This document shows positions 28,330 through 52,964 of a DNA stretch of 63,828 bases, piece after piece (the stretch's first letter is position 1; every line of letters begins with the position of its first letter). The position numbers and the translations under genes are program-made. This DNA is from Gammaproteobacteria bacterium (GTDB taxonomy: Bacteria > Pseudomonadota > Gammaproteobacteria > Pseudomonadales > Azotimanducaceae). The stretch is from contig JAPOXO010000129.1 in the NCBI GenBank assembly GCA_026707045.1, positions 88,155 to 151,982 on the forward strand, given 5' to 3'. Under the pieces are notes generated by a model. That model was not told the DNA's origin. It made no database searches and was given only the letters and a program-made list of their open reading frames with translations.

Positions 28330-28983
28330 TTAGGCGGACATTGCGATAGAGATTTCTATATCCCAAATCGCAGTAGCTACAGTCTGCCCAATGAGGTCAA
28401 GTTTTCGAACCGTGTCTATTCTGTCTGCAACAGCATCCAACTGCTTTCTAGGCAATATCTCATTGAGAATTCCAGAAGCATGAGCTAAACAGAGCAAAAC
28501 GACATCTCGAGGGGAGGGAATTGCTTCAGAGAACAACACTTCAAACAGACGTAGTTTCGTCTCTTTTTCGACGGTGCCGTCAATCACAGGATACTTTCTG
28601 GACCTAAACACCCAAAGTACTCGTTCGTCGACTTGCTCTACTATTCCAAGCCGAATCAATCCTTGAAGCGCTTCTTCACGAATTTCTTCGGCTCGTTCAG
28701 CAGTCCGCTCAACCCAATAGCGTATGTTGTGTTCCTCTTCCGATGAAGCTATTTCAGCTAGGACGGCATCCGCCGTTGGTGAACCAACCGGCTCGTCCTT
28801 AACTACGAACAATTTGTCAAGATCGCTGTCAATCCTTCCACGTTCAGCAAGTTCCATCAGTACTGCACCGCTTAATGAATAGCGTCGCGACCATTCGGGC
28901 AAGCGTACAAATGACCCATCGTGATCATGAAGGAGAAGCAACATAATCTCTTCAGCGATGCTTATTGTGGAGTTGCCAGCCAT
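28330..28983 (-). CDS. GOLPH3/VPS74 (GPP34) family protein
   Basis: The 217-residue protein has the GPP34 fold pattern: SIAEEIMLLLLHDHDGSF near the N-terminus, then YSLSGAVLMELAERGRI, DPVGSPTADAVLAE-like DEPVGSPTADAVLAEIA, and a long helix before VLWVFRSRKYPV. Eukaryotic GOLPH3 binds phosphatidylinositol-4-phosphate at the Golgi; bacterial members are mainly actinobacterial and uncharacterised. Presence in a gammaproteobacterial context is unusual. It is divergent from the hydroxylase/GH3/enolase operon. GGAAGA precedes the ATG. A lipid-membrane role is inferred. Confidence 0.82.
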   Translation of the reverse strand: MAGNSTISIAEEIMLLLLHDHDGSFVRLPEWSRRYSLSGAVLMELAERGRIDSDLDKLFVVKDEPVGSPTADAVLAEIASSEEEHNIRYWVERTAERAEEIREEALQGLIRLGIVEQVDERVLWVFRSRKYPVIDGTVEKETKLRLFEVLFSEAIPSPRDVVLLCLAHASGILNEILPRKQLDAVADRIDTVRKLDLIGQTVATAIWDIEISIAMSA

Positions 28984-29115
28984 GTGTTTTCTTCCGGTTG
29001 GAACATCAGGTGTTCATTGTAATTTCTGAACACGCCTTAGTTACAGAATCAAGACTTTTAGTAAGTGATTGCATTTTGTTATTTTCAGCTAGTGGTGTTG
29101 GTTGGAGGATTTAGA

Positions 29116-29205
29116 ATGAAAACAATTAAGCTAACCTTCTCCCTCCTTCAATTGACCAAAACTAGTGCTGATTGGGCCAACGCGGTCGAAAAATCTCTTT
29201 TGTGA
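29116..29205 (+). CDS. Candidate small ORF or leader peptide (29 codons)
   Basis: An ATG at 29116 follows a strong ribosome-binding site (GGAGG at 29104-29108) and opens a frame encoding MKTIKLTFSLLQLTKTSADW and nine more residues before TGA at 29203-29205. The product has an amphipathic start but no known motif. Inside the frame a CCCTCC run could pair with the GGAGG and hide it, a layout that leader peptides use. It lies 31 bases before the hydroxylase gene. I cannot show that it is translated. Confidence 0.3.
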   Translation: MKTIKLTFSLLQLTKTSADWANAVEKSLL

Positions 29206-29236
29206 CTCGTGTGCATTTAATTGACCCTCCGCCTAT

Positions 29237-30115
29237 ATGGTTGCGTTAGTCAAAAAGGTAACGATCCTATTCTCATATCCATTGGGTATAGGCGCAAGCT
29301 ATGCGCTGTTCGCCTATCTCAACAGCTCCTTCAACAGCGAACTTGCAGCCTATGTTTCCGTGTTGTTTGGAGCCGCGCTCGTCACACTTCACGAATTGAC
29401 AATTCCTAGTCGCCACGAATGGCGTCCAACTTGGACAGACATTTCCAACGACGCAACGTATATGGTTGTTTGTCAGATTCTGTTCGAGAGACTTCTTACA
29501 CTTCTTGGACTGTTTTTGGCTGTCCGGTTGTCCGTTGTTACGTTTTCACAGGTATCGGGATTCTGGCCTCAAAGTTTTCCCGTTTGGGTTCAAGCAGTTG
29601 CGATTTTGGTAATAGGAGACTTTCTGCGCTACTGGATGCATCGAGGTTTTCATCGCTTTCACTGGATGTGGAGATTGCACGCCGTGCATCACTCGCCTAG
29701 TCGCTTGTATTGGCTCAATGTTGGTAGATTTCATCCTTTGGAACAGTCGCTTCAGTTTGTTGCAGATGCACTTCCTTTTATGCTTCTCGGAGTTGGTCCC
29801 GATGTTTTGAGCGTCTACTTTGTGTTCTACGCTGTGAACGGTTTCTATCAGCACTCGAACTGCGATGTGCGTCTAGGATGGTTGAATTGGGTGGTCGCTG
29901 GTCCCGAGTTGCATCGTTGGCATCATTCGTTGAACGGCAAAGAGTCCAATATCAACTACGGAAACAACCTCATTCTTTGGGACATCGTGTTTGGTACAAG
30001 ATTTTTTCCAAAGGACCGTACAGTTTCATCACTCGGGATACCTGCTGAAGACTACCCCTCTGATTTCTTGCGCCAATTGGCTGCACCGTTCGATAACAGG
30101 TTACGACTGGACTAG
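29237..30115 (+). CDS. Sterol desaturase / fatty-acid hydroxylase family protein
   Basis: The 292-residue membrane protein has several hydrophobic helices and three histidine clusters that bind a di-iron centre: HRGFH near residues 135-139, HAVHH near 151-155 and HRWHH near residue 230. Members of this family hydroxylate fatty acids, sterols, ceramides or carotenoids at the cytoplasmic membrane face. The substrate is unknown. It is the first protein-size gene of the tight operon with GH3 (4-base gap) and the enolase homolog. Confidence 0.88.
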   Translation: MVALVKKVTILFSYPLGIGASYALFAYLNSSFNSELAAYVSVLFGAALVTLHELTIPSRHEWRPTWTDISNDATYMVVCQILFERLLTLLGLFLAVRLSVVTFSQVSGFWPQSFPVWVQAVAILVIGDFLRYWMHRGFHRFHWMWRLHAVHHSPSRLYWLNVGRFHPLEQSLQFVADALPFMLLGVGPDVLSVYFVFYAVNGFYQHSNCDVRLGWLNWVVAGPELHRWHHSLNGKESNINYGNNLILWDIVFGTRFFPKDRTVSSLGIPAEDYPSDFLRQLAAPFDNRLRLD

Positions 30116-30119
30116 TTGG

Positions 30120-31757
30120 ATGCTACCGGCTCTCTCATATTTGGTTTTCAAATCGGCACTGAAGTACAAGCAAAAGCCGCACTTTGATGAATTCATTCGA
30201 CTAACTAGAGATCCCAAAGCAACGCAGTGGCAAGCACTCAAGAAAATTCTTCAAGCGAATCAGATGTCAGACTTCGGTCGAGAATTCAGATTCGAAAAGA
30301 TCGACTCCCCGCAATCATTTCAGGAGTCAGTTCCAGTAGGAGACTTTGAAGCTCTACGATCTTACATAGAAAGACAACGAGACGGAGAGGAAAGAGCCTT
30401 AACTTGGGAAATGCCAGTTTACTACAACCGAACAAGTGGGACCATCGGGACACCAAAAGACGTACCAGTAACACAACAAAATGTTGATGAAATTCGATTG
30501 GGTTCCCAGTTGAGCGCGTTTGTACTCTCCCAACAATCGGATGTCTTGAAAGGCAGTGTATTTGCTATAGGAGGATCCGCAATTGAGGCAAAGACCCTTC
30601 GTGGTATTCCCATCGGTTCTGCCTCCGGAATGTTGTACAGGCAACAGTCTAGATTTGTTCGATCACGCTATGTGCTTCCGCCAGAGGTGTTTGACATCGA
30701 AGACGTGGAAACACGATACATAGCAATGGCTGTGTATGGCTTGGCTCGGCGAGATGTGACAACTGTCGCAACCGCCAATCCCTCTACTTTCGTGCGTCTG
30801 ATGGAGATCATAGAGCAACACACCGATGCTGTATTGAGACACATCTCTGAAGGCACAGCGCCCCTTACCGGTACTGGATTGGAGACCATCAAACCAAATC
30901 CAACACGTGCACGGGAACTTAGGTTACTACTAGAACGCAAAAAAACGTTGAGTTACCGTGACTTTTGGCCCGATTTGAAGGGAGTTGTTACCTGGTGCGG
31001 TGGAAGCTGCGGATTTGCACTTTCAAAATTGACTCCATCGTTGCCTTCCGACTGTGCCGTGTATGAATTCGGCTACAACTCGAGCGAGTTTCGAGGCACG
31101 ATTAACGTAGACCTTGAGAACAACCTGTGCCTTCCGATGTTTCAACACTCCTATTTTGAATTTGTTAGTACTCAAGATTGGGAGAACGGACGAAGCAAGT
31201 TTGTAGGGCTGGATGAACTTGAGGACGGTGCGCAGTACTACATCTTTGCAACGACATCTAGTGGACTCTATCGCTATGACATTAACGACATCGTTCGTGT
31301 GTCGGGCCGCATTAATGCCACTCCAACGCTTGATTTCGTTCAGAAAGGACGAGGTGTGACGAACATAACCGGAGAGAAACTCACAGAGCACCAAGTTCTC
31401 GAAGGAATTAATTCATTGCGACAGGAATTTGGAGTCGATCCAGACTTCTTTGTTTTGCTTGCAGACGAAGAGGAATCCAAGTACATGCTTTGCATGGAAT
31501 GCTCGACGAACTATGATCGGAATCAATTGGAGAATTTCCTAGATTCGAGATTGCGAAGTCTCAACATTGAATATCAGGCGAAACGCAAGAGCGGTCGACT
31601 TGGTCGCCTGAGTTTGATTGAACTTCCCACAGGAACAGGTTATCGCTTTCGAAGTGAAAGAGTTGCTGCTGGACAAAGGGACTCTCAGTTCAAGTACCTC
31701 CATCTGCAGTATTTGAGCCAGATTCCGCCGGAACTCTCTCGTCATATACAGTCTTGA
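30120..31757 (+). CDS. GH3-family acyl-acid amido synthetase
   Basis: The start is ATG 30120, four bases after the hydroxylase stop, giving 545 residues; a longer in-frame start would lie inside the hydroxylase gene. Three adenylation motifs of the GH3 family are visible: TSGTIGTPK at about 105-113, YEFGYNSSEFRG near 314 and YRYDINDIV near 385. Plant GH3 enzymes activate carboxylic acids as acyl-AMP and join them to amino acids. Bacterial members are little studied. The last bases (TGA at 31755-31757) overlap the ATG of the enolase homolog. Confidence 0.88.
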   Translation: MLPALSYLVFKSALKYKQKPHFDEFIRLTRDPKATQWQALKKILQANQMSDFGREFRFEKIDSPQSFQESVPVGDFEALRSYIERQRDGEERALTWEMPVYYNRTSGTIGTPKDVPVTQQNVDEIRLGSQLSAFVLSQQSDVLKGSVFAIGGSAIEAKTLRGIPIGSASGMLYRQQSRFVRSRYVLPPEVFDIEDVETRYIAMAVYGLARRDVTTVATANPSTFVRLMEIIEQHTDAVLRHISEGTAPLTGTGLETIKPNPTRARELRLLLERKKTLSYRDFWPDLKGVVTWCGGSCGFALSKLTPSLPSDCAVYEFGYNSSEFRGTINVDLENNLCLPMFQHSYFEFVSTQDWENGRSKFVGLDELEDGAQYYIFATTSSGLYRYDINDIVRVSGRINATPTLDFVQKGRGVTNITGEKLTEHQVLEGINSLRQEFGVDPDFFVLLADEEESKYMLCMECSTNYDRNQLENFLDSRLRSLNIEYQAKRKSGRLGRLSLIELPTGTGYRFRSERVAAGQRDSQFKYLHLQYLSQIPPELSRHIQS

Positions 31758-32872
31758 TGCGGCTAACAGAGTTAAATGGTTTTACATTTCCCGTTCCGTT
31801 TAAGGTTGTGTTCAGGCATGCCGCCGCCTCTAGGAGACAAGCCGAAAATTTTGTGGTATGTGCCACAACTCACACTGGAGTGCAGGGAATTGGTGAGGGT
31901 TGTCCCAGATCTTATGTATCTGGTGAAGACGTAGAGTCCAGCAATCGCTTTCTTAAACAGCATCAAGCGTCGTTGGTGAACTCCATCATGGACCTTGCGA
32001 GCCTTCAGGAATGGATTTTGAATCACAAGAGTGAAATCGATGACAATCCCAGTGCCTTTTGTGCAATTGAAATGGCGATTCTCGATGCACTGGGCAGAGA
32101 GGAAACAACGTGTATTGAGTCGCTACTCGATATCTCCCCAAAGCAAGAAGTGGTTCGCTATTCTGCAGTTCTAGGGGATGCGCCTTTTGCTGCCTACTGG
32201 TGGCTCTTGAGACGATATATCCGCCATGGGTTTACTGACTTCAAAGTAAAACTTTCAGGAAATCGCAAGAGTGATCTAGGAAAACTACAGGAACTGACTA
32301 AGATCGGTTTGGATAGTCGTCACGTTAGATTGGACGCCAATAACTTATGGTCCGCCTCTGATGACTGCATTGAATATTTGTCCTCACTTCCGCAACTCTA
32401 TTGGGGACTTGAAGAGCCGTTGCAACCGCGAGATTTCGCTGGAATGCGAAAAATTGGGACAGCATTGCGGATCAAACAAATTCTTGACGAGAGTTGTACT
32501 AACGTCGAAGATCTCGAAAACCTTTGCGGAAGTCCATGGGTACTCAATCTTAGGGTTTCCAGGGCGGGAGGTATTCTGAGGGCGATCGAGGTGGCTCGAA
32601 TTGCGAGGAAACAGGGCATTGGAATCATTTTGGGTGCACATGTCGGCGAGACCAGCCTTTTAACTCGAGGAACTCTCGCCGTCCTACAGTTTCTAAAGAA
32701 TGAACAGATTGCGTGTGAAGGAGCATTTGGACGACATTTGCTAACCAGTGACTTGAGCAGAGAAGTGATCCAATTTGATCAGAATGCACAGATAGAGCTC
32801 CAACAATTGAGGCTGCTACAGTTGCCTGGCACAGGTCTTACTATTGAGCAAAGCAAACTTAAAGCTCTGTGA
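31757..32872 (+). CDS. Enolase-superfamily protein (dipeptide epimerase / muconate cycloisomerase-like)
   Basis: From ATG 31757, which overlaps the GH3 stop, the product has 371 residues and the muconate-lactonizing subgroup layout. The KxK base motif is K163-V-K165 and the metal ligands are D193, E219 or E220, and D244 (ILDES). The sixth-strand catalytic lysine is replaced: the segment reads LNLRVSRAGG, with R266 where dipeptide epimerases and N-acylamino-acid racemases have lysine in N-I-K-x-x-K-x-G-G. GAHVGETSLLT follows. Reactions in this superfamily begin with proton abstraction next to a carboxylate. The exact reaction is unknown. Confidence 0.8.
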   Translation: MRLTELNGFTFPVPFKVVFRHAAASRRQAENFVVCATTHTGVQGIGEGCPRSYVSGEDVESSNRFLKQHQASLVNSIMDLASLQEWILNHKSEIDDNPSAFCAIEMAILDALGREETTCIESLLDISPKQEVVRYSAVLGDAPFAAYWWLLRRYIRHGFTDFKVKLSGNRKSDLGKLQELTKIGLDSRHVRLDANNLWSASDDCIEYLSSLPQLYWGLEEPLQPRDFAGMRKIGTALRIKQILDESCTNVEDLENLCGSPWVLNLRVSRAGGILRAIEVARIARKQGIGIILGAHVGETSLLTRGTLAVLQFLKNEQIACEGAFGRHLLTSDLSREVIQFDQNAQIELQQLRLLQLPGTGLTIEQSKLKAL

Positions 32873-42863: not shown

Positions 42864-45800
42864 TTGGATACAGAACGACTATTTCTTAGTGCGGAGCGAC
42901 TAGCTCGGGAATTCAATCTATTCCCGACAGCAGATCCAGAGTCTAGTTTCTCCGTGCGCGGCTTGTTGAGCCCAGCTGAAATTCAAGCGCAACTTGCCTC
43001 GCTTGAACGGATGGATATTGATAGTTATATCGAGACGGTTGTTTCGCCAGCGGAACTGCCCAACAGGCCTACGGCATCGGATGCGGTCCAGGCTCTGGGA
43101 AACGTCGAGCAAGCAACCCATAAAGGAGCATATTTCGATGCACTGGTCGAGATGGATTTTGAGAATGATCGCAGAGTAGTCGGGTTTGTAGCTCAGAATC
43201 GGACCTACCGCAATGGCGAGTGGGGCCCTGAAGAGCATTCCATGGCGGCTGAGTTTGTTCAGTCGTGCGCACGCCGCGCAATACCAATTGTCAGTTTGAT
43301 GGACACTCCTGGGGCCGCCGCCGACGAAATGGCCAATCGCGGAAATCAAGCACACAACATATCGCGCCTGATTGCTGTTATGTCCGATGTTGATGTCCCC
43401 AACATTGGTGTCATCTTCGGAATTGGCTATTCAGGAGGAGCTATTCCTCTTGCCGCAAGCAACATGATACTGTCAGTCAGGGACGGCCTGTTTAGCACTA
43501 TTCAACCTCGAGGTCTAGCAAACATTGCGCGTAGACTGAATTTGTCGTGGCAAGAATGTGCAAAACATGTTGGACTTTCTCCGTACGAATTGATGGGCCA
43601 AGGAAATATAGATGGAATTATTGACTATGTACCGGGTGAGTCGGGTGACAAGTTAGAGAATTTCCGCCAGGCAATCATTACCGGCATAAGCTCAGTCGAG
43701 GCGAGCACCAAAGCTTTTGTAGCCCAGGAAAGAATGTTTCTGTCCGAATACGAGCACGTTCTCAATCGCTATCTGTACCCAACGGAACGAATGAAGCAAA
43801 CCGAGAGCGCTTCGCTGTTCGAGTTTGTAGAGAATCCAACCGACTATTTGAATGTCTTCGGCTTGGCCTATCGATTTTCAAGATTTCTTCGGGTCCGAAG
43901 ACGGATCAAGTCCACTGGCAAGGGCCAATATGGACGTTTAGTACAGAGAGATATTCCAGAGGGAGAGCTCTCCGTGCGACAAGATCAGGACAGGAGACGG
44001 ACTTTCCTAAAGTGGCTACAAGATCCTGATCGAATTGTCTACGACGATGGATTGAGACGCACTTGGCGAAACTACCTCTCCACCAAAGCGGCCGCTGGTG
44101 AGACACGAGGAAGATTCGGACGATTCTTCCTTGGCGAACCACGCAAGAACTTCGAAAACGCAAGAAAGACATTGCTGTCGGTTGTGGGGTCCTACTTGGT
44201 GAACCGGTGGAAGACCGATGCGGCAGGAAACTTGCTGTCTCTGATTGACTACCTACAAAACGAATCTGCGTCTCTTGACTTGATCGAATCTACAGATATT
44301 GAGAGTCCCCGCATTCTGCTTCGATCAATCGCAACTGACAGTGAACTGGGACCCGCTCTTCGAGAACGATTTACGCATTACGGTAGGAAATTGCTCGGTC
44401 GCGTCGGTACAGAAGAGATGGCCGACGACCAGCTCTCGGAGCACTTGGCAATCGAACTGAACTTGGTGATATCGGGAGAGCACATCGTGCTACCCAATAC
44501 AGCTGCACATTCAGATGGAACTGCGTTGGTCGTCTCAAAACCGTCCACTTCATACAACAGAAACTTAATAAACGAGAGGTGGGGAGACCACTTCCGAAAT
44601 ACGGATACAGCCGTTGTTGTACACCAAGAATCTGCCGAATCGGCTATCGAGACATTGCTCGACATTATTCGGGAACCGGACCTGCGTGAGTTATTTGTTA
44701 GAGAATTGCAATATTTGCTGGTATTGAACGCTGTTTACGACGAAACGCTGACCAACTTAAAGTCGATAGCAGTAGAGGCCAAGAGTACTCAGTCGCTCGA
44801 CCGCGCAACTGTGAGAAAACTGCTGCGGGAGTCGGTGAGATCATCGGTTCGCGCAAGTCTAGGCAAGGGATTGCCAGAGGAAATGGATTTGGATGAGTTT
44901 CTGGACAATTTCTTCGAATGGTATTTCCGCTTTCAATCCACCGTGGGACTAAGAAAGTTCCTATCGGCTGTTGAAGAATGGAAAAAAGCTAGCTATCCAT
45001 ACATATCGGACACATTGTTCGTCGTAGTTACGTTCTTTTTTGAAAACCTAGTTGTCTCGCTGCTCACCAATGAGTTGGAAGGGAAGCGTTTCAATGGTCG
45101 CATCAAGCCGCGAAACATAGGTCGTAAGAAGGACTTCTGGAACAGACTAAACAATGCCTATCGAGATCTCCAAATTCAAGAAGTACTCACGGAATACAAA
45201 CGCACGCGAAATACGAGCTACGAATCATTTCGTGATATGTTCTTCGAGGATTTCGATGAGATGTTCGCGGACCTCCTAAGTAGCGACCCTTGCGAGTTTC
45301 CCGGATTTCGATTGTCCATAGAAGCTGCTTTAGAACAAGAGAAACCGCCTTGTGGAGTCGTGACCGGTGTTGGCAATTTCAAAGGCATTGAGGGTGGATT
45401 GCGAGTGGGAGCCGTTATCTCGAACTCTTCCTTTCAAGCCGGCGCGTTCGATATGGCGAGTGCGGAGAAGTTTTGCCGACTGCTGCAGACCTGTGCTGAA
45501 GAGCGGTTGCCGCTCATTTGCTTCATTTCGTCGGGAGGAATGCAAACCAAAGAGGGAGCCGGAGCACTATTCTCTATGGCAGCCATCAATGATCGCATCA
45601 CTCATTTTGTTCGCGATTACGATTTGCCAGTTATCGTCTTTGGCTATGGAGACTGTACGGGAGGAGCGCAAGCAAGCTTTGTAACACATCCGTTTGTACA
45701 CACTTACTACTTGTCAGGTACCAGCATGCCTTTTGCTGGTCAGATCGTTGTGCCTAGCTATTTGCCGCTCGACTCGATACTGTCAAATTATCTCGTGGCG

Positions 45801-47759
45801 GTGCCCGGTGCAATGCAAGGACTGGTCAAACATCCGTTTTACGAAAATCTCGATGTAGATCTCAAGGATATTGATTCAGAGATTCCTCTTCCTGAAGTCA
45901 GCATTGCCGAAGTTGTGGCCGGAGTCATGGAAGGTTCGCTCTCCGCTGTTCGAACAGCTCAAATGCCAGCGCTCCGAGATCAATTCAATCCACAAGATCT
46001 CTATCGGTCAGTAAGACGAGTGCTTGTTCATGCTCGGGGATGCGCAGCAGTTAAGGTCGTCCGGACCGCGCAGAGAATCGGCGTAGATGTAGTGTTGGTT
46101 CAGTCCGATCCCGATATGGAATCGTGTGCAGCGGATATGGTTGCAGATCAAAACAAAGTCGTTTGCATTGGTGGAAGCACTCCTGACGAGAGTTACTTGA
46201 ATGCTCGTTCCGTTTTGGCTATAGCCAAGAACGAAGGCGTGGATTCCTTACATCCCGGCATAGGTTTTCTTTCGGAGAACAGTCAGTTTGCAGAGCTGGT
46301 TAGATCGAATGGAATCAACTTCATCGGACCACCTGTTTCCAGCATGGAGACGATGGGGAACAAGTCCAACGCGATCAATACGGCGATCCGACTAGGTGTC
46401 CAGGTTGTTCCCGGTAGTCACGGAATCGTTGCGGACATCGATCTGGCCGAAGAGATAGCTCAGGAGATCGGTTATCCAATTCTGATCAAAGCGGTCCATG
46501 GAGGAGGAGGCAAAGGCATCCAACTTGTCGAGTCTCCAGAGAAGTTTCACGAATCGTTTCAGAGAGTTTCGGTAGAGGCGAGAGCTGCGTTCGGTAGCGG
46601 CGATATGTACTTGGAGCGGTATGTGGAGAAGCTTCGTCATATTGAGGCGCAGATTCTTCGAGATAAGTACGGGAACACTAAGGTCTTAGGCATCCGAGAT
46701 TGCAGCGTGCAACGGAACAAGCAAAAGATCTTCGAGGAATCCGGATCGACTATGTTGCCTGAGAGGTACTTGGAACAGATTCAGAAGGACAGCGAAGCAA
46801 TTGCAAATCAAGTTGAGTATGTCGGTGCTGGCACTCTTGAATTCATCTATGACGTGGAGTCTGACAATCTCTATTTCATGGAGATGAACACTCGTCTGCA
46901 GGTAGAGCATCCGGTAACCGAACTAGTTTCTGGAGTAGACATTGTTGGCCAGCAATTCGCTATTGCAGGTGGCTCGAACATTGAAAAGATGAGGATTGAG
47001 CGCAATGGCTATGCCATCGAAGCACGTGTCAATGCAGAACGCCTGGTGCGGGACGCAGACGGAAATCTTGTATTCCGATCAAGTGCCGGACAGATTTCCA
47101 CGTGCAAATTCCCAAAAGATCCCAACGTGGAGGTTATTTCAATTGCGGCTGAAGGCAAATTTGTTTCGCCTTACTACGACAGCATGATCGCACAAGTAAT
47201 TGCTCGTGGCGCAAATCGCAAGACCACATCCCAACGGTTGATGAAGTATCTATCCAAAGTGCACATCGAAGGAATTGGCACAAATATCGCTCTGTTGAAA
47301 GCTGTTTTGCAAGACCAAGTATTCCTTGATGGAGTCTATACGACCGATTATTTGGAAGATTTCCTAGTGCGCACGGATGCAGATGAACTCATAGCTGAGA
47401 TGGAATCCACAATGGGAGATCAGTCAGCAGGTATTGACGCGAATTCAATCGCAATCGAAGGTAGCGATGAGCTAAAGGTACTGGCGCCCACGACTGGCAT
47501 TTTCTATTTGAAACCGACGCCCACTGAAAACGACTACGTAATTCCCAACGAAAATATAACGACAGATCGCACACTCTGCCAGATTGAGGCTTTCAAAGTT
47601 TTCACTCCCCTACGGCTTCGTGACCTCAATGTGGATTCAAACCCGTTGTATCCAGAAGACCGCGACTACAAGATAACGCGAATAAATGTATCGTCGGGAC
47701 AGCAAGTGAATGCAGGAGATCTGCTCTTTGTTGTTCAACCCAATCAATCTCCCCCTTGA
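42864..47759 (+). CDS. Single-chain biotin-dependent carboxylase (CT-CT-BC-BCCP order)
   Basis: The 1631-residue protein joins all parts of an acyl-CoA carboxylase. Residues ~1-290 are a carboxyltransferase half (LMDTPGAAADEMANRGNQAH, FGIGYSGGAIPLAASN). Residues ~290-820 are helical and unrecognised. About 830-1060 is a second carboxyltransferase half (SSGGMQTKEGAGALFSMAAI, GYGDCTGGAQASF). About 1050-1500 is biotin carboxylase with ATP-grasp GGGGKGI near 1212 and EMNTRLQVEHPVTE near 1340. The C-terminus carries a biotinyl domain with K1578 in EAFKV. Known single-chain enzymes have BC first. The TTG start is the best available. Substrate: acetyl-, propionyl- or longer acyl-CoA, not decided. 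Confidence 0.85.
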   Translation: MDTERLFLSAERLAREFNLFPTADPESSFSVRGLLSPAEIQAQLASLERMDIDSYIETVVSPAELPNRPTASDAVQALGNVEQATHKGAYFDALVEMDFENDRRVVGFVAQNRTYRNGEWGPEEHSMAAEFVQSCARRAIPIVSLMDTPGAAADEMANRGNQAHNISRLIAVMSDVDVPNIGVIFGIGYSGGAIPLAASNMILSVRDGLFSTIQPRGLANIARRLNLSWQECAKHVGLSPYELMGQGNIDGIIDYVPGESGDKLENFRQAIITGISSVEASTKAFVAQERMFLSEYEHVLNRYLYPTERMKQTESASLFEFVENPTDYLNVFGLAYRFSRFLRVRRRIKSTGKGQYGRLVQRDIPEGELSVRQDQDRRRTFLKWLQDPDRIVYDDGLRRTWRNYLSTKAAAGETRGRFGRFFLGEPRKNFENARKTLLSVVGSYLVNRWKTDAAGNLLSLIDYLQNESASLDLIESTDIESPRILLRSIATDSELGPALRERFTHYGRKLLGRVGTEEMADDQLSEHLAIELNLVISGEHIVLPNTAAHSDGTALVVSKPSTSYNRNLINERWGDHFRNTDTAVVVHQESAESAIETLLDIIREPDLRELFVRELQYLLVLNAVYDETLTNLKSIAVEAKSTQSLDRATVRKLLRESVRSSVRASLGKGLPEEMDLDEFLDNFFEWYFRFQSTVGLRKFLSAVEEWKKASYPYISDTLFVVVTFFFENLVVSLLTNELEGKRFNGRIKPRNIGRKKDFWNRLNNAYRDLQIQEVLTEYKRTRNTSYESFRDMFFEDFDEMFADLLSSDPCEFPGFRLSIEAALEQEKPPCGVVTGVGNFKGIEGGLRVGAVISNSSFQAGAFDMASAEKFCRLLQTCAEERLPLICFISSGGMQTKEGAGALFSMAAINDRITHFVRDYDLPVIVFGYGDCTGGAQASFVTHPFVHTYYLSGTSMPFAGQIVVPSYLPLDSILSNYLVAVPGAMQGLVKHPFYENLDVDLKDIDSEIPLPEVSIAEVVAGVMEGSLSAVRTAQMPALRDQFNPQDLYRSVRRVLVHARGCAAVKVVRTAQRIGVDVVLVQSDPDMESCAADMVADQNKVVCIGGSTPDESYLNARSVLAIAKNEGVDSLHPGIGFLSENSQFAELVRSNGINFIGPPVSSMETMGNKSNAINTAIRLGVQVVPGSHGIVADIDLAEEIAQEIGYPILIKAVHGGGGKGIQLVESPEKFHESFQRVSVEARAAFGSGDMYLERYVEKLRHIEAQILRDKYGNTKVLGIRDCSVQRNKQKIFEESGSTMLPERYLEQIQKDSEAIANQVEYVGAGTLEFIYDVESDNLYFMEMNTRLQVEHPVTELVSGVDIVGQQFAIAGGSNIEKMRIERNGYAIEARVNAERLVRDADGNLVFRSSAGQISTCKFPKDPNVEVISIAAEGKFVSPYYDSMIAQVIARGANRKTTSQRLMKYLSKVHIEGIGTNIALLKAVLQDQVFLDGVYTTDYLEDFLVRTDADELIAEMESTMGDQSAGIDANSIAIEGSDELKVLAPTTGIFYLKPTPTENDYVIPNENITTDRTLCQIEAFKVFTPLRLRDLNVDSNPLYPEDRDYKITRINVSSGQQVNAGDLLFVVQPNQSPP

Positions 47760-48746: not shown

Positions 48747-51700
48747 CTACGACTCAAGCTGCTTTCTCTTCTTGCGAGATTCTCTAAGTTCCTTTCGCGA
48801 CCGACGTTGCTCGAGATACCGTACCCAAAAATCGAAGGGCGGCCAAAATTCGGGCTGAGAAACGGCGGCCCATGCGGCCCTCGTCCATCGAGGTAAGGCA
48901 AAAGCCAGCCACAAAGACCAAGCCAGCATCGCCACCAAAAAGACCCAGCCAGGCAGGGAAAACACCCAGGCTGTAGGCAACACATCGCCACTTACGTCTG
49001 CAAACCATTTGAAGTGCGCCCAGCTCGAGCCGTTTCCAGCTATGTGCATGTCGGGATCACCTAACAGCGCTGAAGGTACAGACACTACAAGCATTGCAAG
49101 TCCCGCCAAGCTCAAAGCAATGAATGCCACTTGTTTCAGATAGTAGAGAAACTTATAGCTGTCGATTTCTTTCTTGCGCGATCGGACCCAGATTGCCATA
49201 AACCATGCTCCAACAATGAGCAGTGCCCAAAGATTGATTAGCGTAGCACCCAACGAGAAAAGTACGGCATCAGTGGTCGAGATGGGAATATTGGGCAATC
49301 GAGATATTCCAACGGCAATAAACAGAACTACGATGACAATTGCCCAGAACATGACTGCCGCGCCAAGTGTGGGTCCTCCCAAAAAGAGAGTCCAACGATC
49401 GAGCGGGTAATCAATACTAATGTCGATGTTGCGCGCGCCTTGATCCATCTGTACTTTCGGAGTGCTGAACAACAAACCTGTACCTAAGTCGTCCAACCAC
49501 GAGATTTCGTAGTTGTGTAGACCAGATTGAATGGGCAAGACAATTCGAGAAGTTGCGGGGATCGGTTGATTCTGGTTCCCGACGGCAATGGTTTGTACTT
49601 CAGCGCCATCGGGAAGGTCTATCGGGAAGTCCGCTGACTGAGATGCAAAAACGGAGAGCAACAGTCTAGCTTCGTGCGAGCGATTTCCCACTGAGTACTC
49701 AACACTCGCCGCTTCCACTGTCAGAGTATTTCCCGGTACTGGTGAAGGTCTTGTTAAATCCAAGCGCAGAGTTTCATTCGATCGAGGCGAAAACAGTGTC
49801 TCATTGAAATCGGACTGTATTGGAGTAATACCTTCATACTCGAACGACCAGAAGTCGGATCCTCGAACCGACCATTCTTCCTTCCTTTCGTCAAGTGTGG
49901 GAGCTGACAGTTCAATCTTTCCGTCGAAATGTAGCTGACTGAACCAGGTTTGTCTGCGTTCATTCGCACCAAACGAGAGAGTTACGTGGTTGTCTTGTAC
50001 GGTGCCTTTCGTAACTAGAACCGTCTCGTTTTGCAGAAGCGGTATTCGGACTGTAAAAGCCTCCGAGAGCGGAGCGATGCGCGTAACCGTCGTGTTCACA
50101 GTAGGTTCATACGATAGATTTAACCGTCGTTGTACCAGTACATAGGGTTCAATTGGCTGAGATGCGGCTAACACGGAGGACTCATCGCTGACTTCTCCAG
50201 GAGTCCTTCGAGCCATCGTAATCTGTGAAGACTTTAGTTTTCCTTCAACCAGACCCTCCACAGACCAGTCAGGAGCATCAATATGGATACGACTCGGCTT
50301 GATAGGAAACGCTATGTCAAACTGCCCGAGACTCGCTATGTTTGCCTTGATATTGACAACGTGGTTCCCGCGACTCAGCAACACATAAGTCTCACCGTCG
50401 GGGGCGCGACTCAAAGGACTCTCGTCTTCGTCTACCAATATTGATTCCGGAATCCAAGAATTGTTGCCCTGAGGCATTGCAACCCCAACTTCGTCCTCAG
50501 CGTGTATAATGAAACCTAGGTGCAACTGGTCTTCACTTACCGAAACGTAAACGTCCTCAAGGAAGGTACAGTCCGGCAAACATTCAGGAGGATGAATCAA
50601 GCGTTGTTTCAGTTGTTGCAAGACTCTTGAGTCTGGAACAGCAGCAAGCGTATCGTTGGGAACAAGCACCAAGATTGCAAGCAAAGGAAGTACGCCTCGC
50701 AGAATTCTCGGCAGATGGGCAGTAGCTGTCTTCGACCTAATGGCCACTAGAAAAGCAATTGTTACAAGTGAAAACAGGGCCCCTAGAGCTGCAATGATTC
50801 TCGTAGCCCAAGGTGGAAGCAGGACAAGTGAAAAAGACTGGTCTTTCTTGACTGGCCCTGACCAATCAAGGCTAGCGGAACGCCATTTCCACGTAGGAAC
50901 TCCGGGACCAGTTTGAATGGTGACACCTTGAGACCTGGTTCCAATGTCCGTTGCAGTCATGGATGTTCCTCTAGATGCCCGGTCGGTTTCCAATTCCTCC
51001 AGAATCTCTGCAGCAAGATCCGGTCGTGTAGCCGCGATGCTCTCTTCCGGCGGTGTCGGGATGCGACTTCCAGTAACGGATGTGTATTCTTTTGCCAGTA
51101 CATCGGCTTGAGGGGTTCTGACGGTGTATTGCTGGTCAAACTCGGTCTGCCATGCGGCTCCTCTAGCTACGTAGCGGGCCTGTTCGATCATTCTGTCAGT
51201 CGTTTCGAACTGAGGAAAAATGGCGTAGCGTACGGTGAACGCAGCGTGATAGACCGTAGCTATGCCTACGACCACCGCAATTACCCAATAGATCACAGTT
51301 GTGGCCGAACGAAACCATTTAGTCTTTACAAGACTGTGCAGATATACCAAGCCGGCTAGGACAAGCCAGCCCACTGATGGCAGGAAGTTGTCCTGATATG
51401 TTAGTAGTGCTGCAAATCCAACTAGTACAGCCCAGATCGGGCCAGCAAAACGAAACACAAGCGAAACGAGCAGCAAACAGACAAATACGTCCCAAATGGA
51501 CCACATCGACAACCATGAATCGCCAACACTATCTATTCCGAAGCTTCCTATCAGACGCCATCCCGGTGGAAGATGAAGCATTGCTCCCAATGAGAATGCA
51601 TCGATATCCCATCCGGTGGCCACCATGCGGTTGGCTCTTTCCACCTCGCTTACTGCTAAGACGAGAGAATTTCGCTTGTCGAGATTGATTCCAGGTCTGG

Positions 51701-52964
51701 TTTGGTTCGCGGGGTCTTCGTACGTGATGAGACGAAGATCGGAATCGACTAGAACTCTTCCGGGAACGTAGCTTGAAGCTATGCGCATTTCTGTATCCGT
51801 AGTTGCCCGTATTTCGTCTGAAACGACGTATGAACTACCATCAAAACTAAGCCACAAATCTCGAGAAATTTCGAACTTTGCTGGATTTGGGTTCACATTG
51901 CCCCGTTGTTCCTCGACCAGAGTCATCGGAGCATCTTCCGAAAGAATGTAACCGTAAACATCGCTTCCCAGCATCGGGTTCGGAGCCTTTACTTGACTGA
52001 GATTGACTCGGGGCGGTCCCTCTACGCTGACGACGCGAAGAGAACGGTTAGGTTCAAATCCCCAGATTTCTTCCACGGGCCATTCTTCACCAGCTCGTTC
52101 GTAAGTGAAGGAGTCGATCAGTTGTTTCGCACGCGCTCTGACTGAGACCATGTGCTCACCACGGGTTACGAGAACGCTCAACTGTCCTTCAGAATTGATA
52201 CTCGCCGGAATTTGGGACAGAACGCCTATCAGGCTGAATTCTTCCGGTAGGACATTGCCTAAATCCACGACTCGGGGATTTCCGCCAACCGCTAGTTCGA
52301 TGTAGGTCGTAAGATGTTGTGGTAGGCCGTCGACCAATTGCCTAAACACCTTGACACTCAACGTGTCCACGATGGGTTCGGCAGCTTCGGCCCGTTGCGT
52401 TAACCAAAGCCGCCTGTGGCCGCTGTCTAGGAAAGGATGTAACTCTCCCTCTGTATCTACCGTCAGCTTGACAATTGCTGCTGCTGGAATATGGAGGAAC
52501 TGGGGTGCACTGTTCACGTTCCACAAGAGTTCTCCCGTAACCTGGTGCTTCCCCACTGGCAATGTCAATCGCGGTGTTCCATTGCCACCGCCTAATGTTG
52601 CGGTTTCCCCGTTGATGCGCACGTCTTGCGGCCGATGCGCATTGGATACCGGCAAATCGAGGTTAGATTCCGCGAATACGTGAACGCTTATTTGGAATTT
52701 AGCTCCAGCAGGTTCGTTTCGCCGAACATCCATTTGAATTTCCGAGACCCATACACAGGTCTGGATGTCTTCATCTTGCGAATCAAAAGGACAGTTGTAC
52801 TGTTCTTCGCCGTGTAGTACCCAACCAACCCAGGGCTGCAATACATCGGGGATGTACAAATCTTCGGCAAATACCTCAATGGCAGCGCTTGCCAAGAGAA
52901 ACGAAGCACCGATTGACCAATGCCTGAACCTTAGGCGTGAAATGCTTGATCTAGAAATTCGCAT
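48747..52964 (-). CDS. Large internally duplicated envelope membrane protein of unknown function
   Basis: The 1405-residue protein has a signal-like segment (about 18-33), an exported beta-rich domain beginning VLQPWVGWVLHGEEQYNCP with C58 and C70, a cluster of membrane helices at ~488-640 and more near 725 and 761. The second half repeats the pattern: LLAILVLVPNDTLAAVPDS, then an exported domain starting VLQQLKQRLIHPPECLPDC near 783-810, and helices from ~1195 to 1355. The family is present in Proteobacteria as 'hypothetical protein'. The internal duplication is my reading. No function is known. Confidence 0.8.
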   Translation of the reverse strand: MRISRSSISRLRFRHWSIGASFLLASAAIEVFAEDLYIPDVLQPWVGWVLHGEEQYNCPFDSQDEDIQTCVWVSEIQMDVRRNEPAGAKFQISVHVFAESNLDLPVSNAHRPQDVRINGETATLGGGNGTPRLTLPVGKHQVTGELLWNVNSAPQFLHIPAAAIVKLTVDTEGELHPFLDSGHRRLWLTQRAEAAEPIVDTLSVKVFRQLVDGLPQHLTTYIELAVGGNPRVVDLGNVLPEEFSLIGVLSQIPASINSEGQLSVLVTRGEHMVSVRARAKQLIDSFTYERAGEEWPVEEIWGFEPNRSLRVVSVEGPPRVNLSQVKAPNPMLGSDVYGYILSEDAPMTLVEEQRGNVNPNPAKFEISRDLWLSFDGSSYVVSDEIRATTDTEMRIASSYVPGRVLVDSDLRLITYEDPANQTRPGINLDKRNSLVLAVSEVERANRMVATGWDIDAFSLGAMLHLPPGWRLIGSFGIDSVGDSWLSMWSIWDVFVCLLLVSLVFRFAGPIWAVLVGFAALLTYQDNFLPSVGWLVLAGLVYLHSLVKTKWFRSATTVIYWVIAVVVGIATVYHAAFTVRYAIFPQFETTDRMIEQARYVARGAAWQTEFDQQYTVRTPQADVLAKEYTSVTGSRIPTPPEESIAATRPDLAAEILEELETDRASRGTSMTATDIGTRSQGVTIQTGPGVPTWKWRSASLDWSGPVKKDQSFSLVLLPPWATRIIAALGALFSLVTIAFLVAIRSKTATAHLPRILRGVLPLLAILVLVPNDTLAAVPDSRVLQQLKQRLIHPPECLPDCTFLEDVYVSVSEDQLHLGFIIHAEDEVGVAMPQGNNSWIPESILVDEDESPLSRAPDGETYVLLSRGNHVVNIKANIASLGQFDIAFPIKPSRIHIDAPDWSVEGLVEGKLKSSQITMARRTPGEVSDESSVLAASQPIEPYVLVQRRLNLSYEPTVNTTVTRIAPLSEAFTVRIPLLQNETVLVTKGTVQDNHVTLSFGANERRQTWFSQLHFDGKIELSAPTLDERKEEWSVRGSDFWSFEYEGITPIQSDFNETLFSPRSNETLRLDLTRPSPVPGNTLTVEAASVEYSVGNRSHEARLLLSVFASQSADFPIDLPDGAEVQTIAVGNQNQPIPATSRIVLPIQSGLHNYEISWLDDLGTGLLFSTPKVQMDQGARNIDISIDYPLDRWTLFLGGPTLGAAVMFWAIVIVVLFIAVGISRLPNIPISTTDAVLFSLGATLINLWALLIVGAWFMAIWVRSRKKEIDSYKFLYYLKQVAFIALSLAGLAMLVVSVPSALLGDPDMHIAGNGSSWAHFKWFADVSGDVLPTAWVFSLPGWVFLVAMLAWSLWLAFALPRWTRAAWAAVSQPEFWPPFDFWVRYLEQRRSRKELRESRKKRKQLES

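What the first reader, a model, noticed from the sequence alone, without database searches (positions are those of the whole stretch)
28330..32872. Candidate acyl-amino-acid lipid operon: di-iron hydroxylase, GH3 synthetase, enolase-superfamily protein, with divergent GOLPH3 homolog
The three plus-strand genes are packed end to end: 4-base gap, then a stop/start overlap. GH3 enzymes form amides between carboxylic acids and amino acids. Dipeptide epimerases and N-acylamino-acid racemases of the enolase superfamily act on exactly such N-acyl products. The first gene hydroxylates lipid-like substrates. A GOLPH3-family protein (lipid head-group binding in eukaryotes) is encoded divergently. Together this suggests a pathway making a hydroxylated acyl-amino-acid or related membrane amphiphile. 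I know of no described system of this composition.
Basis: partly seen in the sequence, partly recalled or inferred. Interest (0 to 1): 0.75.

Follow-up and report, generated by a model that had tools for sequence, protein, structure and literature searches.

The report
Three-gene amino-lipid cassette with unusual enolase
Three neighbouring genes, for an oxygen-using hydroxylase, an enzyme that joins acids to amines, and an enolase relative with one catalytic residue swapped, travel together through many bacteria and probably make an undescribed fatty-acid/amino-acid molecule; the nearby Golgi-protein-like gene is an unrelated neighbour.

Summary
The genes are as described. Window 29237-32872 holds FA_hydroxylase (FAH), GH3 and a muconate-lactonizing-type enolase-superfamily protein (ENO) in one tight operon. 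In 4 of 27, FAH and GH3 are fused into one protein. In 150 genomes of the family, all 22 strong ENO hits lie in the triad. The divergent GOLPH3 gene is not part of it: 7 genomes keep ilvC-GOLPH3-msrP without the cassette. GH3-made amino lipids are already known (OlsH, PMC12493201), and FAH's only NCBIfam match is OlsE, so the lipid idea is not new in kind. New here is the ENO subfamily. Its sixth-strand catalytic Lys is Arg, with a conserved H/R/R/Y lid, in 30 of 30 GH3-linked copies covering that site; 60 of 60 other homologues read keep Lys. That argues against an ordinary two-base racemase. My best model is GH3 amide synthesis, hydroxylation, then one-base enolization of the amino-acid carboxylate. 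Substrates and product remain unknown.

The parts
29237..30115 (+). FAH: OlsE-like membrane di-iron hydroxylase, 292 aa (PF04116). Ten His invariant in 24 of 24 aligned copies (H135, H139, H148, H151, H152, H166, H206, H226, H229, H230), including HX3H, HX2HH and HX2HH clusters.
30120..31757 (+). GH3 acyl-acid amido synthetase, 545 aa (PF03321/PF23571/PF23572). ATP motifs TSGT...K113, YNSSE323 and GLYRYDIND are present.
30435..30437 (+). Codon of GH3 Ser106 in the TSGT ATP motif; by motif it corresponds to the Ser115 that is essential in OlsH (PMC12493201)
   Evidence: correspondence by motif, inferred
31757..32872 (+). ENO: enolase-superfamily protein of the muconate-lactonizing subgroup, 371 aa. 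KxK163/165, D193, E219, D244 kept; Arg266 where relatives have the sixth-strand Lys; lid residues H21, R26, R51, Y53
32552..32554 (+). Codon (AGG) of ENO Arg266, the position of Lys268 of chain 1jpm (YkfB)
   Evidence: (printed alignment to 1jpm)
28330..28983 (-). GOLPH3/GPP34 homologue: divergent neighbour, shown NOT to belong to the cassette

Best explanation
A self-contained three-enzyme cassette that builds an amide-linked amino lipid or lipid-like metabolite. GH3 uses ATP to adenylate a free fatty (or polyketide) acid and couples it to the alpha-amine of an amino acid (inferred from GH3 chemistry and the OlsH precedent). The OlsE-like membrane di-iron enzyme hydroxylates the acyl chain or head group, tightly coupled to GH3, sometimes in one polypeptide (coupling shown; hydroxylation site inferred). 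ENO binds Mg2+ and the free carboxylate of the N-acyl amino acid and removes the alpha-proton with Lys165. Because Arg266 replaces the opposite-face Lys, it most likely does one-base chemistry, such as beta-elimination or cyclisation or one-way protonation, rather than reversible two-base racemisation (inferred). GOLPH3 is not part of it.
For: Same ordered triad in 27 genomes (own + 26). 22 of 22 strong ENO hits (359.8 bits or more) among 150 family genomes sit in the triad; the next-best ENO hit has 54 bits. FAH::GH3 fusion in 4 of 27 (G623, G717, G734, G1073), while G765, same genus as G717 and G734, is unfused. Pairwise identities of the three proteins correlate at 0.91-0.96 over 24 triads (G768, G792 and G004 dropped as broken or cut). 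GH3 ATP motifs kept. NCBIfam matches to OlsH 83.8 bits and OlsE 170 bits. ENO's nearest solved relatives handle N-acyl amino acids and dipeptides: N-succinyl Arg/Lys racemase 2p88 (profile E 1.6e-55; Foldseek TM about 0.8), 3jva, 1jpm. R266 with lid H21/R26/R51/Y53 in 29 of 29 aligned plus G1073. In G241 a PKS, a type II thioesterase, GH3, an alpha/beta-hydrolase and an R-type ENO lie in one run, which fits GH3 acting on a released acyl chain. The own genome (95% complete) has no match to PF13444, the acetyltransferase family that I recall as OlsB's.
Against: No substrate or product was shown. GH3 and FAH score far below the OlsH and OlsE equivalog cut-offs (83.8 vs 620; 170 vs 475). No OlsI-like O-acyltransferase lies beside the window cassette. 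The link is one-sided: 12 of 18 distant GH3-search loci read have no ENO match, and one of them (L141) has a weak FAH match near its GH3 without ENO. An Arg can act as a base in some enzymes (recalled), so racemisation is not excluded. GH3 enzymes also conjugate small non-lipid acids. Patchy distribution (22 of 150 genomes in the family; 10 of the 18 genus genomes) fits a specialised metabolite as well as a membrane lipid.
Confidence: 0.5

Rival explanations
1. An ornithine-lipid pathway in the OlsH/OlsE sense: GH3 makes lyso-ornithine lipid, FAH hydroxylates the ornithine, a remote acyltransferase completes it, and ENO is an accessory.
For: The only NCBIfam matches of GH3 and FAH are OlsH and OlsE; OlsH was shown to make N-acyl ornithine (PMC12493201); PF13444 absent from the genome; ENO's closest solved relative by profile is an N-succinyl Arg/Lys racemase.
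Against: Both proteins score far below the equivalog cut-offs; no OlsI or OlsG beside the cassette; does not explain why ENO is always in the triad in the family (22 of 22).
Confidence: 0.17
2. ENO is a true epimerase in which Arg266 serves as (or substitutes for) the second base, so the cassette makes D-amino-acid lipids.
For: Nearest folds are N-acylamino-acid racemases and dipeptide epimerases; KxK and metal ligands intact.
Against: YkfB uses Lys162 and Lys268, and mutating either lowers epimerisation (PMC5808125, passages). The Lys268 position is Arg in 30 of 30 GH3-linked copies covering it, and Lys in 60 of 60 other homologues read.
Confidence: 0.17
3. GH3 conjugates a small or polyketide acid; the product is a diffusible signal or defensive metabolite and not a membrane lipid.
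For: In G241 the GH3-ENO genes adjoin a reducing PKS and a thioesterase; a Streptomyces plasmid GH3 lies in a PKS cluster; patchy distribution; solved GH3 relatives are plant hormone or benzoate amido synthetases.
Against: No PKS was seen among the neighbours that I searched for families around triads (not all neighbours were searched), and the coupled oxygenase is a fatty-acid-hydroxylase-family protein.
Confidence: 0.14
4. GOLPH3 is a functional partner that binds the lipid made by the operon.
For: Adjacent and divergent in the window, G006 and G014.
Against: A GPP34 match at 45-100% identity in 18 of 18 genus genomes, including ones without the cassette; ilvC-GPP34-msrP without the cassette in 7 of 12 loci examined, the cassette being on another contig of those genomes.
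Confidence: 0.02

Closest known systems
OlsH-OlsG-OlsI ornithine-lipid operon of Singulisphaera acidiphila (PMC12493201; parts 1-5 of 9 read)
   Same: GH3-family enzyme in a small operon; ATP-dependent N-acylation of an amino acid; GH3 nucleotide motifs
   Different: Partners there are an N-methyltransferase and an alpha/beta-hydrolase O-acyltransferase, not a hydroxylase and an enolase; the window GH3 scores 83.8 bits vs cut-off 620. The words enolase and fatty acid hydroxylase do not occur in its main text
OlsE ornithine-lipid hydroxylase (NF052566; PMC3972451, passages)
   Same: Only NCBIfam family matched, over residues 29-287 (170 bits); PF04116-type His clusters
   Different: Far below cut-off 475; no operon or fusion of OlsE with GH3 in the passages I saw
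N-succinyl Arg/Lys racemase 2p88, L-Ala-D/L-Glu epimerase 1jpm, dipeptide epimerase 3jva (muconate-lactonizing subgroup)
   Same: Fold (TM about 0.8), KxK motif, metal ligands
   Different: Sixth-strand Lys is Arg; lid residues differ (H21/R26/R51/Y53 in the window subfamily); association with GH3
Plant GH3 amido synthetases (JAR1 4epl/5ech)
   Same: GH3 architecture, ATP motifs, E 1.6e-26
   Different: Distant in sequence, different setting, substrates of the window enzyme unknown

Membership tests
GH3 acyl-acid amido synthetases | PF03321 N domain plus M and C domains over curated cut-offs | tested here: met
   188.2, 71.8, 40.4 bits vs 23.6
GH3 acyl-acid amido synthetases | Three nucleotide-binding motifs | tested here: met
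   RTSGTIGTPK, YNSSE, GLYRYDIND in P0003; kept in most of 34 aligned rows
GH3 acyl-acid amido synthetases | ATP-dependent amide formation | not testable with these tools
   needs assay
OlsH lyso-ornithine lipid synthetase (NF052613) | Score over equivalog cut-off | tested here: not met
   83.8 vs 620 bits
OlsH lyso-ornithine lipid synthetase (NF052613) | Operon with OlsI-like alpha/beta-hydrolase (as in planctomycetes) | tested here: not met
   none in the window operon itself, which holds FAH, GH3 and ENO only; alpha/beta-hydrolases lie between GH3 and ENO in G241, G107, G399 (G318 has a like gene map)
OlsE ornithine-lipid hydroxylase (NF052566) | Score over equivalog cut-off | tested here: not met
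   170 vs 475 bits; the fusion protein of L131 205.6
FA_hydroxylase superfamily (PF04116) | Domain over cut-off and conserved His clusters | tested here: met
   107.1 vs 31 bits; ten His in 24 of 24
Enolase superfamily, muconate-lactonizing subgroup | Capping and barrel domains; KxK; three acidic metal ligands | tested here: met
N-acylamino-acid racemase / dipeptide epimerase | Second catalytic Lys on the sixth barrel strand | tested here: not met
   Arg266; Lys in all 5 printed PDB alignments
N-acylamino-acid racemase / dipeptide epimerase | Score over NCBIfam equivalog cut-offs | tested here: not met
   59.1 vs 400, 58.3 vs 500, 46.3 vs 343 bits
GOLPH3/GPP34 | PF05719 over cut-off | tested here: met
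   146.3 vs 29.1 bits; not part of the cassette

The most novel reading that the evidence does not exclude
An undescribed class of bacterial amide lipid (or acyl-amino-acid metabolite) made by a dedicated cassette, in which a new enolase-superfamily subfamily, marked by Arg266 and the H/R/R/Y lid, performs a reaction not known for the superfamily on a GH3-made, hydroxylase-modified N-acyl amino acid, for example beta-elimination to a dehydroamino-acyl lipid.
Probability: 0.35. Interest if true: 0.82.

Novelty: new variant of a known kind. Interest (0 to 1): 0.62.

Why it matters
GH3-dependent amino-lipid synthesis in bacteria was reported in 2025 (PMC12493201), and that paper leaves the substrates of most bacterial GH3s open. 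This cassette gives a second, genetically cohesive GH3 system with an oxygenase and an enolase-superfamily partner. The Arg-for-Lys swap tracked GH3 linkage without exception in what I read, so it predicts which enolase-superfamily proteins share this function and poses a clean mechanistic question: what does this scaffold do with one base replaced?

Tried and rejected
GOLPH3 as a member: rejected by seven loci with ilvC-GPP34-msrP and no cassette. ENO as a plain NSAR/AEE: weakened by Arg266. PhoB-regulated lipid operon: a Pho-box pattern gave 3 matches in the window against 6.35 expected, none just upstream of FAH. Plasmid collection: 8 records with GH3 hits, all at 23.5-26.6% identity; of the ten ENO rows listed (of 114 records) eight are annotated as muconate or chloromuconate cycloisomerases. 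Named paper for the GH3 of PKS clusters (borrelidin borL, recalled): the eight papers listed were not about it. A paper describing GH3 with enolase or with fatty acid hydroxylase: none relevant in the listings of searches, which cover only an open-access library. Whether the S33 hydrolases of L130, L135 and L139 are OlsI homologues could not be tested (no OlsI sequence at hand). The K-type controls were read only in loci with up to about 1.5 kb either side; nine K-type loci (L200-L208) with wider flanks, cut short on one side in L208, also had no GH3 match.
Full report
OBSERVATION. Searches confirm the genes: a GPP34 homologue at 28330-28983 (-); FAH at 29237-30115 (+); GH3 from ATG 30120 to 31757 (+), 4 bases after the FAH stop; ENO from ATG 31757 to 32872 (+), overlapping the GH3 stop by one base. 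Pfam names are over cut-off. NCBIfam gives OlsE (170 bits, cut-off 475) as the only family for FAH, OlsH (83.8, cut-off 620) as the only one for GH3, and 13 enolase-superfamily families, all below cut-off, for ENO. The window lies in contig C118 of a 3.34 Mb, 143-contig genome with one GH3 match. The flanks are ilvB/ilvH/ilvC upstream and msrP/msrQ-like genes downstream (these names are recalled from the sequences, no family search was run on them).

CONSERVATION. A search of 58 genomes (own plus relatives) found GH3 in 18. Reading the loci showed FAH-GH3-ENO in the own genome and ten others: G006, G014, G002, G013, G007, G008, G004, G011, G010 and G023, which is another genus of the same family. 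An ENO-profile search of 150 family genomes gave 22 strong hits (359.8 bits or more), with the next at 54 bits; all 22 sit in the triad. GH3-profile and ENO-profile searches at class and phylum level added G623, G642 and G1073. The total is 27 triads. Imperfect ones: FAH is cut by a contig end in G004 and G717; about 1.6 kb intervene between GH3 and ENO in G011; FAH lies in two frames in G792; GH3 is broken in G768. FAH and GH3 form one open frame of 855, 858 and 860 aa in G623, G734 and G1073, and also, cut by a contig end, in G717; the automatic 'fused' flag for L175 is a short overlap and is not counted. G765, in the same genus as G717 and G734, is unfused, so fusion probably happened at least twice (inference). 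Identity matrices of the three proteins correlate at 0.91-0.96 over 24 triads; shared ancestry alone could give part of this.

LIMITS OF THE LINK. It is tight from ENO's side, not from GH3's. Of 18 loci of more distant GH3-search hits read, six have an ENO match (L129, L130, L131, L132, L135, L139) and twelve have none; one of the twelve (L141) has a weak FAH match (34% over 137 aa) near its GH3. In the genus, 10 of 18 genomes have the triad, six have only a more distant GH3, and G003 and G012 (87% and 77% complete) have no GH3 match.

GOLPH3 IS NOT A MEMBER. A GPP34 match at 45-100% identity is in 18 of 18 genus genomes. Of 12 further GPP34 loci read, seven (G013, G011, G007, G010, G002, G008, G004) have ilvC-GPP34-msrP adjacent, while the cassette of those genomes lies on another contig; in the six of these whose upstream side is held the cassette follows two short genes that I read, without a family search, as sufT/sufE-like. 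The other five (G017, G005, G003, G015, G009) have GPP34 without these neighbours. In the window, G006 and G014 the cassette sits between GPP34 and msrP.

WHAT ENO IS. The AlphaFold model is good (pLDDT 91, pTM 0.91). Foldseek finds N-acylamino-acid racemase and dipeptide epimerase folds at TM about 0.8; the profile's best PDB relative is 2p88, titled N-succinyl Arg/Lys racemase. KxK (163/165) and ligands D193, E219, D244 are invariant in 29 of 29 aligned copies (26 triads plus G318, G241, G107). Position 266, just after strand 261-265, is Arg in 29 of 29, and also in G1073, but Lys in each of the five printed PDB alignments. In the alignment to 1jpm it falls on Lys268; PMC5808125 (passages) names Lys162 and Lys268 of YkfB as the two Lys flanking the substrate carbon and says that mutating either lowers epimerisation. 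[quoted passage not shown] coli dipeptide epimerase eliminates fluoride from a difluoroalanine substrate, so elimination is within reach of this scaffold. As a falsification test I searched 369 class and 293 order genomes with the ENO profile (the samples overlap with earlier ones) and read position 266 in 74 fetched loci (recounts them). Of 67 distinct homologues, 7 have Arg with lid H21/R26/R51/Y53, and all 7 have a GH3 match in the locus; 60 have Lys, and none has a GH3 match in the locus. The profile was made from the GH3-linked copies, and only the best matches were fetched, so an Arg-type without GH3 could still exist.

WIDER ASSOCIATION. In G241 (L130) a reducing PKS, a type II thioesterase, GH3, an S33-type hydrolase and ENO lie in one run; G318 (L129) has the same gene sizes and order, its other genes not searched for families. 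G107 has GH3, S33 hydrolase, ENO; G399 has GH3, S33 hydrolase and an ENO cut off by the contig end. OlsI, the O-acyltransferase of the OlsH pathway, is also an alpha/beta-hydrolase (PMC12493201); homology to it was not tested. Peptidase_S15-family genes adjoin the cassette in G765 (downstream) and G1073 (upstream); G717 and G734 have a gene of similar size at the same downstream place. In six other genus members a more distant GH3 (32-36% identity; in two pieces in G016) is followed by a gene of one cluster, identified in G015 as a luciferase-like monooxygenase, with no FAH or ENO match beside it.

MECHANISM. Shown: gene cohesion, fusions, intact motifs, Arg266. Inferred: GH3 joins an acyl acid to an amino acid; FAH hydroxylates acid or product; ENO enolizes the carboxylate with Lys165 alone. 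That the same lid residues occur both with FAH and with PKS partners suggests a shared head group and varying acyl chains. Substrates, product and location are unknown.

NOVELTY. GH3-dependent ornithine lipid synthesis in planctomycetes is in print (PMC12493201, parts 1-5 of 9 read; term search). It reports GH3 homologues across phyla with open substrates, and its main text does not mention enolase or fatty acid hydroxylase. Searches listed no paper on this composition; the library is open-access only.

Noticed in passing
L031 7465-10187 and equivalents in G001, G005, G009, G016, G017: Six genus members carry a second GH3 clade (32-36% identity; in two pieces in G016) followed by a gene of one cluster, a luciferase-like monooxygenase (PF00296) in G015, instead of FAH/ENO.
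   Followed up: partly
L130 6-11554 (G241): Reducing type I PKS, type II thioesterase, GH3, S33 hydrolase and Arg-type ENO in one run: a PKS-GH3-enolase cluster that I could not match to a known one. L129 (G318) has a like gene map.
   Followed up: partly
L037 6207-8890; L141 6920-9512: Distant GH3 genes followed by a Rieske oxygenase gene: GH3 with an oxygenase recurs.
   Followed up: no
L209 (NZ_CP027299.1 plasmid): Streptomyces plasmid GH3 in a PKS/P450/aminotransferase cluster with an F420-dependent LLM oxidoreductase and a ThrRS; looks like the borrelidin cluster (recalled, not verified).
   Followed up: no
L211 (NZ_CP134684.1 plasmid): Citrobacter plasmid GH3 followed by four radical SAM genes and an N-acetyltransferase.
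   Followed up: no
G000:C3:47884-48504, G000:C135:44012-44572 and others: Genus genomes carry further, weaker GPP34 matches inside open frames of about 660-770 aa, besides the short GPP34 gene.
   Followed up: no
window 42864-47759: 1631-aa open frame joining acetyl-CoA-carboxylase-type carboxyltransferase and biotin carboxylase domains.
   Followed up: no
window 48747-52964: 1405-aa minus-strand open frame with no Pfam match at E 1e-5.
   Followed up: no
L028 6017-7463: About 1.6 kb between GH3 and ENO in G011, with a 260-aa open frame on the other strand without a Pfam match.
   Followed up: partly
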